Shown here piece by piece: positions 2,165 through 6,539 of a DNA stretch of 40,682 nt. Location of the stretch: the NCBI GenBank assembly GCA_903897335.1, contig CAIUAY010000213.1, forward strand, positions 1-40,682. The letters are read 5' to 3'. Every line of letters begins with the position of its first letter. The first letter of the stretch is position 1. The stretch comes from an uncultured Chromatium sp. GTDB lineage: Bacteria; Pseudomonadota; Gammaproteobacteria; Chromatiales; Chromatiaceae. The notes under the pieces were generated by a model. The model worked only from the letters and a program-made list of their open reading frames with translations. It was not told where the DNA came from and did no database searches. The translations under genes and the position numbers were made by a program.

Positions 2165-3277
2165 CTACCTGAAAACCTGATAACGGTTTTTGCCAGTCAG
2201 TTTGGCCTGATACATGGCCAGGTCAGCCTGTCGCAGCAGTTGATCCGCAGTGATCTCACGCGCTTGTGGATAGAACGTGACGCCGATGCTGGCCGACACC
2301 TGAAGCCAGTGATTGTCGATCGGAACCGGCTGGGATGCCGCTGCAAGCAGGCGGACGAGCATGGGCACGCTGTCGGCTTCCACCGCCAGATCCACCAGCA
2401 CCGCGATGAATTCATCGCCGCCCAGACGTGAAAGGGTATCGCCCTGGCGCAGGCTCTGCCTCATGTTCGCGGCAATGGCAATTAGAAACTGGTCGCCAAT
2501 ATCATGTCCGTAGGTGTCGTTAATAATTTTAAAGCCATCCAGGTCGAGATAGGCCACTGCCAGGCGTTGTCGGTGTCGCTCGGTCTGCGCCATGTCCTGA
2601 AGCAGACGGTCGACCAGCAGCAGACGGTTGGGCAGCGTGGTGAGCGGATCGTAGTAGGCAATGTGTTCGAGTTGTTGCTGATACGCCTTGATCACGCTGA
2701 TGTCACTCAGCACGACGCGACTGACAGGCGCCCCAGGATGGTCTCCAGGAGAAGGCTCGCTGGCGGCATCCAGTCGCGCCCAGAACGTGGTGCCGTCGGC
2801 TTTCAGCATTCGCAGTTCACACCCCTGCGGCGTTGTCGCAAGGACTGAGCTGGCCATGTTCGGGCGGAGTATCCAGGAGGCATTCAGGAGCTGTTTGCGG
2901 TACAGGTAAAAATGATCCTGATCATCCCTAAAGATGAACCGGGTGAGCGGCTGCTTAATCAGTGCGTTTTTGGACACGCCCAGCATGTTCGCGGCGGTCA
3001 GATTGATTTCCAGGACCGACCCTGATTCGGAGAGCGTGAAATAGCCGACCGGCGCCCGGTCATAGAGATCAAAATAACGCGCCCGCGTGGTTTCGATCTC
3101 CTCCTGCACCCGACGCAATTCCTCATTCTGCATCGTCAGTTCGACCTGATGCACCCGCAGTTCGTGGAGCGTCTGCTGGATGTCTGCGGGCAGGAAAGCC
3201 GCGAGTTCTTCGTCCTGAATGATCGCTTCGGCGCGTTGGCGCAGCGTCAGTTCTCTGTCTGATGGCGCGTCTACCAT
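2165..3277 (-). CDS. PAS-GGDEF diguanylate cyclase, 370 aa
   Basis: Makes the second messenger c-di-GMP from two GTP. An N-terminal helical stretch (about 1-68, with VELTMQNEELRRVQEEIE) leads into one PAS sensor domain (about 70-195), then a GGDEF domain (about 205-370). The catalytic motif is an intact GGDEF at residues 286-290. An RQGD at 277-280, five residues upstream, matches the RxxD inhibitory I-site, so product feedback is expected. There is no EAL domain, signal peptide or transmembrane helix; the protein should be cytosolic. It lies downstream of the CheB-CheR-PAS gene on the same strand, but 253 bp of repeat-rich sequence separates them, so separate transcription is likely. The PAS ligand is unknown. 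Confidence 0.93.
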   Translation of the reverse strand: MVDAPSDRELTLRQRAEAIIQDEELAAFLPADIQQTLHELRVHQVELTMQNEELRRVQEEIETTRARYFDLYDRAPVGYFTLSESGSVLEINLTAANMLGVSKNALIKQPLTRFIFRDDQDHFYLYRKQLLNASWILRPNMASSVLATTPQGCELRMLKADGTTFWARLDAASEPSPGDHPGAPVSRVVLSDISVIKAYQQQLEHIAYYDPLTTLPNRLLLVDRLLQDMAQTERHRQRLAVAYLDLDGFKIINDTYGHDIGDQFLIAIAANMRQSLRQGDTLSRLGGDEFIAVLVDLAVEADSVPMLVRLLAAASQPVPIDNHWLQVSASIGVTFYPQAREITADQLLRQADLAMYQAKLTGKNRYQVFR

Positions 3278-3330
3278 GGGGTCGGCACGCTCTGGTCGGT
3301 TAAGTTATGCTGTTGAAACATGATTATCGC

Positions 3331-3400
3331 CGACAGCCGACAGCCGACAGCCGACAGCCGACAGCCGACAGCCGACAGCCGACAGCCGACAGCCGACAGC
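3331..3400. repeat. Heptanucleotide tandem array, 10 exact copies of CGACAGC
   Basis: Ten uninterrupted identical 7-bp units fill 3331-3400, in the gap between the CheB-CheR-PAS gene and the diguanylate cyclase gene and about 54 bp upstream of the cyclase start. Exact repetition without point changes suggests recent or continuing slippage. The 7-nt unit can be read through in any frame, giving an artificial 7-residue peptide repeat, but nothing supports translation. Confidence 0.97.
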
Positions 3401-3432
3401 GATTGTTGCTTGACATATCGTAAACGCCAGCA

Positions 3433-3503
3433 GTTGAGTTGATGCAATCAACCTAACGCCACCGTCAACACGGATGTTGGGTTGCCAACAGCGGCAATCC
3501 AAC
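3433..3503. repeat. Dispersed two-hairpin repeat, copy A
   Basis: The first hairpin has arms GTTGAT (3438-3443) and ATCAAC (3447-3452) around GCA. The second half contains TTGGGTTGCCAACAGCG (3477-3493), identical to the same segment in copy C (24879-24895), followed by CAATCCAAC. The outer ends match the GTAGGGTTG/CAACCCTAC termini of copy B at 6/9 and 7/9 positions. This is the most degraded of three copies. It lies just downstream of the CheB-CheR-PAS gene, next to the heptamer array. Confidence 0.75.
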
Positions 3504-3530
3504 CAACGCGGTTTTGGCATCTTAAACCTC

Positions 3531-6500
3531 TCACGCAGAGTTCCGCGCCCATTCAATGGTCGCCAGACCATACACTTGTCCTGTCTCGTTCACCAGCGCG
3601 GTGGCGGTGATCCACACCTCTAGGATAGTTCCTTCTTTAGTGAGTCGCTGGCTGCAAAATGGCTCCAGCCGGTCAGCCGGACGCAGTGGCGGCAGTCTGG
3701 CCAAATCCGCAGCGCGCGCGTCTTCCGGGATGCGGTCGCGGGCGTTCATGTTGAGCGCCTCGGCTTCCGTCCAGCCATAGAGCCGCGCCGCACCGGGATT
3801 CCAGGCCAGGATGTGGCCATCCAGATCCTGCGTGGTGATGGCATCCTGCGCATCGCGCACGATCGCGGCGAGGTGCAGCAGATCATGGGATTGTCGCAGC
3901 GACTCGCGGGCCTGCACGATTTCGGTGAGATCGACAAAGGTGATCACCGCGCCTTCGATCACGTTATCGAGCGTGCGGTAGGGGTGAATGCGTAGCGCAT
4001 ACCAGACACCAGCCGTGGTCTGGACTTCCAATTCTTTTGAAATCAGGGTATCCAGCACTGCCTGTGTGTCCGCCACCAGTCGATCATAGCCCACCAGGTT
4101 GGACAGGATATGACCCACCGGTCGCCCGACGTCGCTCGAAATCAGGTTAATGATCTGGGTCACGGCGGGGGTGAAACGCAGGATGCGCAGTTGATAATCG
4201 ACATAGATGGTGCCGATGCCGGTGCCGGCCAGCAGGTTGTTCATGTCGTTGTTGGCTCGTGACAGGTCGGTCACCCGGTTTTGCAGCTCGGCATTGACGG
4301 TGGCCAGCTCTTCGTTAACTGATTGCAGCTCCTCTTTGGAGGTCTCCAGTTCTTCGTTGGTGGACTGCAATTCTTCGTTGACCGACTGCATTTCCTCGTT
4401 CGAGGATTTTAGTTCTTCGTTGATGGTCTCCAGTTCCTCGTTGGAGGTCTGGAGAAACTCTTCCTTAGTGCGCAGTTCCTGCTTGAGCGCGACGATGCGT
4501 TCATCGACACTCACTGCGCTGGGTGCGTCGGTCAGGTGATCGTCAGGCGGCAGATCCGCCGACCTGAGTGGCGCAACCGGTTGCCCCGGCTCCAGGATGA
4601 CCAGATACAGCGGTACCTCGCTGTTCGGGGTTGAGGTGCCCGTCACCCGCCGGATGGTCAGATTGACGCTCGTGAAATCGCCATTGGTTTTCACTCGCAG
4701 ATCATCGCGCTGCACGGCGTCTTCGCTCTCCACCGCTTGGTGCAGAGCCGTGGTCAGTTCACGTCGCAACCCCTCACGCGCCATTTTGAGGAGATTGCTG
4801 ACGCCGGTCTCGCCCGGCGTCGGTTCCAGATACTGACCGGTGCGTCCGTGCAGATAGAAGATGTCTCCCTGCGCGTTGACGAGCACGGCAGCCAGCGTAG
4901 TGGCTTGCAGAAGTGACTGTTCGGTCAGTTCACGCAGCGAGGAGTTTGCGGATAGTGGTGATATTGGCTTTTTGTCGGTGGTTTGTGTGCGCATTGCATC
5001 GCTATAAGTTGTTATGGGCGGCAAAAAACGCTCTAGCAAGGGGCGCACGGCACCGTATTGATCATCCTGACGCCGATAAATTTTCTGTTTACGGTTCAGC
5101 ACGGTAAACAGATCATGAAAATCACCCACGCTTTCGGACGTTCCCAGAAACAACACGCCGCCTGGCTTCAGCGCGTAATGGAACAGCGGAATCAGCTTTT
5201 TCTGCAAGTCCGCGCTGAGATAGATCAAGAGGTTGCGGCAACTGATGACATCGAGCTTCGAGAATGGCGGGTCTTTGATCAGGCTATGCTGGGAAAAGAT
5301 CAGCAGGTCGCGGATGGCTTTGTGGATGCGGAACATGTCGCCACCCGGCTCCGAAGAAAAAAAGTGGGCGAGACGCTCCGATGACAGATCGCTGGCAATA
5401 CTGGCCGGATAGAGTCCGGTACGCGCCGTGGCAATCGCCTCACTGTCGATGTCGGTGGCAAAGATCTGGATCTTGAAACGCGACTTCAGCGTTTCCTGAT
5501 GTTCGGCAAGCAGGATGGCGAGCGAATAGGCTTCCTCTCCGGTGGAACAGCCCGGCGACCAGACGCGGATCGCGCTATCCACCGAGCGGCCAGTGAAGAG
5601 CGCCGGGATGACCGTATCTTTCAGCGACTGAAAGGCCGCCGGGTCGCGGAAAAAGCTGGTGACGCCGATCAGGAGGTCACGAAACAGCGCATCAATTTCG
5701 CTGGGAACCTGTTGGAGATAAGCGACATAGCTATACAGCGTATCGATCTGGTGAACCGCCATGCGTCGCTCGATGCGGCGATGGACGGTGCTTGGTTTGT
5801 ACTGTGAAAAGTCGTGGCCGGTCTGAGCGCGCAACAGGATGAAAATCTTGCGTAGCGCGTTGTCAGTCTGGGGCGCCAGAATGGTTCCGGAACTGCGCGG
5901 TCGACCAAAGGCGTGAACCACGTAGGCGATCAGTTGGGCGGGCATCTGGGCGGGCGGCAGTTCATAGTCCACCAGTCCGGTGGTGATGGCGCTGCGCGGC
6001 ATTCCGTCGTACTCGGTTGAATCGGGCGTTTGAGCCATGACGAGACCGCCCTCGCCCTTGATTGCCCGCACCCCCAGCGTACCATCGCTGCCGGTGCCAG
6101 ACAGCACGATGCCGATGGCGCGGGCATGTTGATCCTGAGCGAGCGAGCGGAAAAAGAAATCAATCGGCAGACGTTGGCCACGCGGGGCGGTCGGTTCGAT
6201 CAGATGCAGTGCGCCGTTGAGAAAGGCCATGTCGCGGTTGGGCGGGATGATGTAAGTGCAGTTGGGTTGCACCACCATCTCATCTTCAACCTCGAATACC
6301 TGCATCCGGGTATAGCGCCGGATGAGGTCGGTCAGGATGCTCTTGTGATCTGGCGCCAGATGCTGCACCAGCACGAAGGCCATGTTCGGATTGGCATCGG
6401 CGGGCATCCCGGAGAAGAATGCCTCGAAGGCCGCCAGCCCGCCAGCGGAGGCACCGATGCCGACGATGGGAAAGTCGGGAGGCGTGGGCGTCTCCGGTGC

Positions 6501-6539
6501 TGGCGTGGTCAATGTTTGATCGTTGCTGCCTGCCGTCAT
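3531..6539 (-). CDS. CheB-CheR-PAS fusion protein, 1002 aa
   Basis: A hybrid chemotaxis-type signalling protein. Residues about 22-212 form a CheB methylesterase domain with the catalytic triad visible: Ser31 in GASAGG, His60 in VQHL and Asp152 in GTGSDG. Residues about 225-495 form a CheR methyltransferase, with the SAM-binding loop WSPGCSTGEEAYS near 328-339 and ATDIDSEA near 361. A long coiled coil of NEEL/TNEE heptads follows (about 678-765), then two PAS domains (about 768-880 and 885-1000). There is no CheY receiver in front of CheB, and no kinase or GGDEF output at the C-terminus. Such fusions are common in environmental proteobacteria, but the target of methylation is not established. 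No chemoreceptor or cheA/cheW gene is adjacent, so its partners are elsewhere. Cytosolic by sequence. Confidence 0.95.
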   Translation of the reverse strand: MTAGSNDQTLTTPAPETPTPPDFPIVGIGASAGGLAAFEAFFSGMPADANPNMAFVLVQHLAPDHKSILTDLIRRYTRMQVFEVEDEMVVQPNCTYIIPPNRDMAFLNGALHLIEPTAPRGQRLPIDFFFRSLAQDQHARAIGIVLSGTGSDGTLGVRAIKGEGGLVMAQTPDSTEYDGMPRSAITTGLVDYELPPAQMPAQLIAYVVHAFGRPRSSGTILAPQTDNALRKIFILLRAQTGHDFSQYKPSTVHRRIERRMAVHQIDTLYSYVAYLQQVPSEIDALFRDLLIGVTSFFRDPAAFQSLKDTVIPALFTGRSVDSAIRVWSPGCSTGEEAYSLAILLAEHQETLKSRFKIQIFATDIDSEAIATARTGLYPASIASDLSSERLAHFFSSEPGGDMFRIHKAIRDLLIFSQHSLIKDPPFSKLDVISCRNLLIYLSADLQKKLIPLFHYALKPGGVLFLGTSESVGDFHDLFTVLNRKQKIYRRQDDQYGAVRPLLERFLPPITTYSDAMRTQTTDKKPISPLSANSSLRELTEQSLLQATTLAAVLVNAQGDIFYLHGRTGQYLEPTPGETGVSNLLKMAREGLRRELTTALHQAVESEDAVQRDDLRVKTNGDFTSVNLTIRRVTGTSTPNSEVPLYLVILEPGQPVAPLRSADLPPDDHLTDAPSAVSVDERIVALKQELRTKEEFLQTSNEELETINEELKSSNEEMQSVNEELQSTNEELETSKEELQSVNEELATVNAELQNRVTDLSRANNDMNNLLAGTGIGTIYVDYQLRILRFTPAVTQIINLISSDVGRPVGHILSNLVGYDRLVADTQAVLDTLISKELEVQTTAGVWYALRIHPYRTLDNVIEGAVITFVDLTEIVQARESLRQSHDLLHLAAIVRDAQDAITTQDLDGHILAWNPGAARLYGWTEAEALNMNARDRIPEDARAADLARLPPLRPADRLEPFCSQRLTKEGTILEVWITATALVNETGQVYGLATIEWARNSA

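What the first reader, a model, noticed from the sequence alone, without database searches (positions are those of the whole stretch)
3331..3400. Ten perfect heptamer repeats upstream of a diguanylate cyclase gene
Uninterrupted CGACAGC x10 lies 54 bp upstream of the PAS-GGDEF start, just before a minus-strand GATAAT (3323-3328). Slippage would change promoter spacing or leader structure by 7 bp steps, so c-di-GMP output might vary between siblings. Its purity suggests ongoing length change.
Basis: partly seen in the sequence, partly recalled or inferred. Interest (0 to 1): 0.6.

Follow-up and report, generated by a model that had tools for sequence, protein, structure and literature searches.

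The report
Slippage-prone heptamer array before diguanylate cyclase
A run of ten identical 7-letter DNA words sits between two signalling genes of a purple sulfur bacterium; relatives show that such runs gain and lose words and even swap the word at the same place, but whether this alters the neighbouring gene is unproven, and if it does, the likelier route is the reading frame of a small leader ORF rather than promoter spacing.

Summary
The array is real: a perfect (GCCGACA)x10.3 at 3329-3400, the only one of its kind in the genome. It lies in the 253-bp gap between two same-strand genes, CheB-CheR-PAS-PAS (upstream) and PAS-GGDEF. Relatives change the interpretation. In one relative (G002) three PAS-GGDEF copies carry arrays at the same site with matching flanks: CTGCCAA x8, CTGCCAA x9 and CTGGCAA x12; ours reads CTGTCGG x10 on the gene strand. 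Copy number changes by whole units, and whole arrays swap unit. Chromatium okenii lacks the array. CTGNNRR-class arrays occur in 72 of 210 genomes of the family, so this is a member of the known bacterial intergenic heptanucleotide repeats. The promoter-spacing idea fails: GATAAT abuts the array, so any -35 lies inside periodic DNA and unit changes do not move it. RNA structure is not conserved between unit types. A more plausible but unproven route: the array lies in a short leader ORF with its own Shine-Dalgarno site; in C. okenii and in the 8-unit G002 copy the ORF's stop overlaps the GGDEF start. Each 7-nt unit shifts the frame, so only one copy number in three would couple translation.

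The parts
3329..3400 (-). Perfect heptamer array; unit CTGTCGG read on the gene strand, 10.3 copies
2165..3277 (-). Downstream gene: PAS-GGDEF diguanylate cyclase, 370 aa, intact GGDEF motif
   Evidence: Pfam GGDEF 3.5e-45, PAS_9 1.2e-8; LGGDEF in the translation
3531..6539 (-). Upstream co-directional gene: CheB-CheR-PAS-PAS protein, 1002 aa; probable operon partner
   Evidence: Pfam CheB 9.8e-54, CheR 1.1e-52, PAS_10 9e-27; the two ORFs are adjacent in C. okenii and G002 and overlap by ATGA in T. marina
3305..3520 (-). Candidate leader ORF (71 aa at 10 units; ATG at 3520, stop TAA beginning 30 nt before the GGDEF start); the array lies inside it
   Evidence: Frame analysis; start position with purine-rich SD shared by relatives. 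That it is translated is inferred
3525..3532 (-). Shine-Dalgarno-like GAGAGG region of the candidate leader ORF
   Evidence: Anti-SD duplex -6.5 kcal/mol versus -3.3 for the GGDEF start
3271..3277 (-). ATGGTAG: GGDEF start overlapped by an out-of-frame TAG (+4), which the leader ORF would use at 9 or 12 units
   Evidence: same layout (ATGTTAA, GTGTTAG, GTGTTAA) in relatives
3323..3328 (-).

Best explanation
It is a slippage-prone heptanucleotide tandem array of a class (CTGNNRR on one strand) spread over many Chromatiaceae genomes. It lies in the probably transcribed spacer of a two-gene unit, CheB-CheR-PAS then PAS-GGDEF. SHOWN by comparison: arrays at the same orthologous site change by whole 7-nt units, and whole arrays change unit sequence (CTGCCAA, CTGGCAA, CTGTCGG) while the flanks stay recognisable. 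INFERRED: the changes arise by replication slippage followed by homogenisation of the units, and the spacer is cotranscribed. Much of this turnover may be neutral. If copy number affects the cyclase, the most likely route is the reading frame of a short leader ORF that contains the array, not promoter spacing. The confidence is for the array, its dynamics and its operon-spacer setting; a regulatory effect of that kind by itself I put near 0.25-0.3.
For: Perfect array, unique in the genome. Orthologous site in G002 with homologous sequence on both sides of the array (CAACAAT...array...TTAACCGRYCAGAGCG) but arrays CTGCCAA x8, CTGGCAA x12, CTGCCAA x9. The 8- and 9-unit copies are 98.7% identical over 1484 bp, and the arrays differ by exactly one 7-bp unit. 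Thiocystis orthologous sites: 7 vs 6 CTGACAA, 5 vs 15 CTGCCAA, and CTGCCAA swapped for CTGACAA with conserved flanks. Class census: CTGNNRR x4 in 72/210 family genomes, about 740 arrays by my sum, versus about 56 (GTCNNRR) and about 117 (TGCNNRR) for scrambled cores. In sample stretches 8 of 14 exact heptamer arrays fall in the class against 5.3% expected by unit content. Gene pair adjacent in C. okenii and overlapping in T. marina; no terminator-like site in the gap.
Against: No reads or second isolate of this species could be examined, so change within this population is inferred from relatives. Slippage itself was not observed; unequal recombination or gene conversion between arrays could give the same patterns. 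Cotranscription was not tested. The 8-versus-9 case comes from an assembly with 14% estimated contamination, although both copies lie on one contig.
Confidence: 0.75

Rival explanations
1. Frame-dependent translational switch (an added function on top of the array dynamics, so not exclusive of the best explanation). The array is read as part of a short leader ORF. At one copy number in three the leader ribosome stops at a TAR codon overlapping the GGDEF start (RTGNTAR) and reinitiates efficiently; at the other two it stops 25-51 nt upstream and the cyclase is poorly made. Slippage would then be a phase switch for c-di-GMP.
For: Leader ATG with a purine-rich SD at the corresponding place in G000, G002 (three copies) and C. 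okenii; anti-SD energies -6.5, -5.6, -10.0, -3.6 against -3.3, -2.6, -3.5, -2.4 for the GGDEF starts. In array-free C. okenii the leader ORF is MLKNSSIDQNSCTGLGAPAQC*, its TAA overlapping the GGDEF GTG at +4. In G002 the 8-unit copy ends ...NLTGQSAPELC* at +4, whereas the 9- and 12-unit copies stop at -48 and -51. Ours at 10 units stops at -30 and would couple at 9 or 12. All unit types at this locus are stop-free in the leader direction, unlike the common CTGACAA/CTGATAA units. A 3-nt, frame-keeping difference separates the downstream flanks of the 8- and 12-unit copies.
Against: The leader peptide before the array is not conserved between G000 and G002, and the only substitutions between two G002 copies there change amino acids. 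Only one of four arrays is in the coupling frame, as chance would give. An open leader of this length, and the +4 overlap in C. okenii, each have an appreciable chance probability. T. marina has no leader ORF. No expression data.
Confidence: 0.27
2. Neutral array: slippage changes its length, but no copy number matters to the cyclase; selection only tolerates it in a spacer.
For: Unit sequence, length, RNA structure and leader peptide all vary freely among homologues. Arrays of the class occur at many unrelated sites in the family. Xanthomonas heptamers showed no detectable regulatory role (PMC4692102).
Against: All three unit types at this locus are stop-free in the gene direction, and the leader start/overlap layout recurs; both are suggestive only.
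Confidence: 0.55
3. Promoter-spacing phase variation: unit number alters the distance between promoter parts or a regulator site and GATAAT, so transcription of the cyclase varies.
For: GATAAT lies next to the array. 7-bp repeats do tune hmw1A expression in Haemophilus (PMC8262952).
Against: A -35 would be inside the array and unchanged by whole-unit indels. No sigma-70-like site here. GATAAT is not kept in homologues. The gene pair looks operonic. Only a regulator bound upstream of the array would be displaced, and no such site was identified.
Confidence: 0.06
4. The array acts as a folded RNA leader (hairpin) or as binding sites for an RNA-binding protein, as proposed for TAACTGA arrays.
For: Strong hairpin for the CTGTCGG array on the mRNA strand, spacer z-score -4.4. 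Translational regulators were proposed for TAACTGA arrays (PMC4679880).
Against: Energy -44 for CTGTCGG, -20.8 for CTGGCAA, -2 for CTGCCAA at the orthologous site: neither structure nor sequence is kept. No Rfam family (best E 0.57, below cutoff).
Confidence: 0.07

Closest known systems
TAACTGA (= CTGATAA) direct repeats of Beggiatoaceae, Thiocystis violascens, Cyanobacteria (MacGregor 2015, PMC4679880)
   Same: 7-nt unit with the same CTG core, intergenic, often just upstream of start codons, many sites per genome, sulfur-oxidising gammaproteobacteria including a Thiocystis
   Different: Unit here is CTGTCGG; a single array in this genome; stop-free in the gene direction; inside a candidate leader ORF; unit differs among orthologous sites
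GGGAATC / GGGGA(C/T)T heptamer arrays of Xanthomonas and Nostoc (Rehm 2015, PMC4692102)
   Same: Heptamer arrays at shared intergenic sites of related species with extensive length and sequence variation
   Different: Those are G-quadruplex formers; CTGTCGG has no run of three G
hmw1A 7-bp ATCTTTC promoter repeats of Haemophilus influenzae (PMC8262952)
   Same: 7-bp tandem array upstream of a gene; whole-unit copy-number change
   Different: There the array links two mapped promoters and expression falls with length; here no promoter was found and the setting is an operon spacer

Membership tests
Bacterial intergenic heptanucleotide simple sequence repeat | Exact tandem 7-nt unit, several copies, between genes | tested here: met
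Bacterial intergenic heptanucleotide simple sequence repeat | Copy number varies at orthologous sites | tested here: met
   Met among relatives; within this species not testable
TAACTGA repeat family (strict) | Unit is TAACTGA in some rotation | tested here: not met
   Unit CTGTCGG; shares only CTG and the wider CTGNNRR class
Phase-variable contingency locus (SSR switch) | Copy number changes within a clonal population | not testable with these tools
   One assembly only; no reads
Phase-variable contingency locus (SSR switch) | Copy number changes expression of a linked gene | not testable with these tools
   Needs reporters; only the frame prediction was made
hmw1A-type promoter repeat | Array overlaps or separates promoter elements | tested here: inconclusive
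   No sigma-70-like site, and a -35 for GATAAT would be inside the periodic array; other promoter types are not excluded
G-quadruplex heptamer repeat (GGGAATC type) | Runs of at least three G in each unit | tested here: not met
   Unit CTGTCGG / GCCGACA

The most novel reading that the evidence does not exclude
A heptamer microsatellite inside a leader ORF acts as a three-state translational-coupling switch for a diguanylate cyclase: only copy numbers of one class modulo three end the leader on the cyclase start codon, so slippage makes c-di-GMP signalling phase-variable in a free-living phototroph; in G002 three paralogous cyclases would be set independently (8 units = coupled, 9 and 12 = uncoupled).
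Probability: 0.25. Interest if true: 0.78.

Novelty: new member of a known kind. Interest (0 to 1): 0.45.

Why it matters
Slippage switches are known mainly for surface genes of host-adapted pathogens (own knowledge). If a heptamer array tuned a c-di-GMP enzyme in an environmental phototroph through reading-frame coupling, it would be a new kind of target and a simple, testable route to sibling variation in signalling. Even if neutral, the locus is a clear natural record of unit-by-unit growth and whole-array unit replacement, and the CTGNNRR class raises the question why this heptamer core is favoured across a bacterial family.

Tried and rejected
Promoter scan (nothing; on the relative: no site in gene direction). 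Rfam (nothing above cutoff). Conserved RNA structure: rejected by the G002 unit types. Array as coding part of the GGDEF protein: rejected, the GGDEF frame has a stop 30 nt before its ATG. Array as a multi-copy element in this genome: rejected, single site, though the class is multi-copy in Thiocystis. The backwards-read control was not independent, because CTGNNRR units and their reversed form can match the same array (it also hit this array), so scrambled cores were used instead. Literature searches for translational-coupling phase switches and for SSR-switched diguanylate cyclases gave no direct precedent among the titles and abstracts I saw. The C-terminal conservation of the leader frame could not be told apart from plain DNA conservation, since the GGDEF frame looks equally conserved there (by eye, from the alignment).

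Full report
OBSERVATION. The window holds a perfect period-7 tract at 3329-3400 (GCCGACA x10.3; CGACAGC x10 at 3331-3400). Chance cannot produce it (about 10^-33 expected in 40 kb). It is the only such array in the assembly. On the gene strand the unit reads CTGTCGG. It lies in the 253-bp gap (3278-3530) between a CheB-CheR-PAS-PAS gene (3531-6539, minus) and a PAS-GGDEF gene (2165-3277, minus) with an intact GGDEF motif.

SETTING. The genome belongs to a Chromatium/Thiocystis genus group. G001 has a contig of the same length and content as one of Chromatium okenii DSM 169, and G005 likewise one of Thiocystis minor. The two-gene order is kept in C. okenii (gap about 60-95 bp), in G002, and in Thiocapsa marina, where the ORFs overlap by ATGA. 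No terminator-like or sigma-70-like site was found in the gap. A shared transcript is therefore likely but not shown.

THE ARRAY MOVES IN STEPS OF ONE UNIT. In G002 the PAS-GGDEF gene is present three times within 6 kb, each copy with an array at the same place. Two copies are 98.7% identical over 1484 bp, and their arrays differ by exactly one 7-bp unit (CTGCCAA x8 and x9). The third has CTGGCAA x12 between closely similar flanks. Our array, CTGTCGG x10, sits between flanks homologous to these. So one site has carried at least three unit types, each array pure. C. okenii has no array. In Thiocystis genomes, orthologous sites show 7 vs 6 CTGACAA units, 5 vs 15 CTGCCAA units, and one site with CTGCCAA in one genome and CTGACAA in the other. 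This is what slippage followed by spread of a variant unit would give; recombination between arrays could do the same.

A CLASS OF HEPTAMERS. Arrays of at least four CTGNNRR units occur in 72 of 210 genomes of the family, about 740 arrays by my addition of the counts. Two scrambled cores gave about 56 arrays in 27 genomes (GTCNNRR) and about 117 in 34 genomes (TGCNNRR). In sample stretches, 11 of 17 exact heptamer arrays belong to the class; leaving out three that had led me to the contigs, 8 of 14, with 5.3% of heptamers expected in the class if all were equally likely. The sample is small and base composition was not modelled. The TAACTGA arrays of Beggiatoaceae and T. violascens (PMC4679880) are CTGATAA in this register, so the class contains a known family.

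WHAT IT DOES NOT DO. Slippage would not change promoter spacing for the GATAAT at 3323-3328: that hexamer touches the array, a -35 would lie at 3345-3352 inside it, and periodic DNA presents the same bases after any whole-unit change. GATAAT is not conserved. The mRNA-strand hairpin of our array (-44 kcal/mol) compares with -20.8 for CTGGCAA and -2 for CTGCCAA, so a conserved RNA structure is unlikely.

WHAT IT MIGHT DO. An ATG with a purine-rich Shine-Dalgarno-like site follows the CheB-CheR-PAS stop in G000, C. okenii and all three G002 copies, with anti-SD energies stronger than those of the GGDEF starts. In C. okenii this leader ORF is 21 codons long and its TAA overlaps the GGDEF start (GTGTTAA). 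In the 8-unit G002 copy it is 69 codons and ends at the same overlap (ATGTTAA); the 9- and 12-unit copies stop 48 and 51 nt upstream. Ours at 10 units stops 30 nt upstream, and 9 or 12 units would end on ATGGTAG. Because 7 is not a multiple of 3, each unit gained or lost changes the frame. Termination on the next start codon is the classic layout for translational coupling (general knowledge), so one copy-number class in three could give high cyclase translation. Against this: the leader peptide is not conserved between G000 and G002, two G002 copies differ there only by amino-acid-changing substitutions, only one of four arrays is in the coupling frame, and open frames of this length are not rare. 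I put this switch at about one in four.

COMPARISON WITH KNOWN SYSTEMS. It is a heptanucleotide simple sequence repeat, a known kind in bacteria. Rehm et al. found length and sequence variation at shared sites in Xanthomonas and could not identify a role in gene regulation (PMC4692102). The promoter heptamers of hmw1A are proven switches but have a different layout (PMC8262952). Searches did not show me a diguanylate cyclase switched by such a repeat or a coupling switch of this form, but the library is partial.

VERDICT. Real, and demonstrably dynamic in relatives; an ordinary kind of repeat in an interesting place. The leader-frame model is testable with a simple reporter series.

Noticed in passing
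window 3473-3504 (minus): GGTTGGATTGCCGCTGTTGGCAACCCAACATC: a ~35-nt palindromic repeat dispersed in the genus (11 matches in G000, 21 in G001, 29 in G002), apparently inserted in the spacer of G000 only.
   Followed up: partly
L119 6972-12890 (G002): Three PAS-GGDEF genes close together, each with its own heptamer array; the first and third nearly identical.
   Followed up: yes
L314 1365-1549; L332 1347-1525: Paired arrays in inverted orientation (CTGACAA on one strand, CTGCCAA on the other) about 80-90 bp apart in two Thiocystis genomes.
   Followed up: no
L298 1326-1516 versus L334 near 550: A roughly 170-bp stretch carrying a CTGACGG array is absent from the matching place in G004: a filled/empty site pair that may show how arrays are seeded.
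   Followed up: no
L321, L325, L327, L329, L330, L331 (G003 contig ends): Several contigs of G003 begin inside or next to long CTGCCAA arrays (13-19 units), so dispersed heptamer arrays probably broke the assembly.
   Followed up: no
window 4309-4447: Imperfect 21/63-bp repeats inside the CheB-CheR-PAS gene, just before the PAS_10 region, probably a coiled-coil linker.
   Followed up: no
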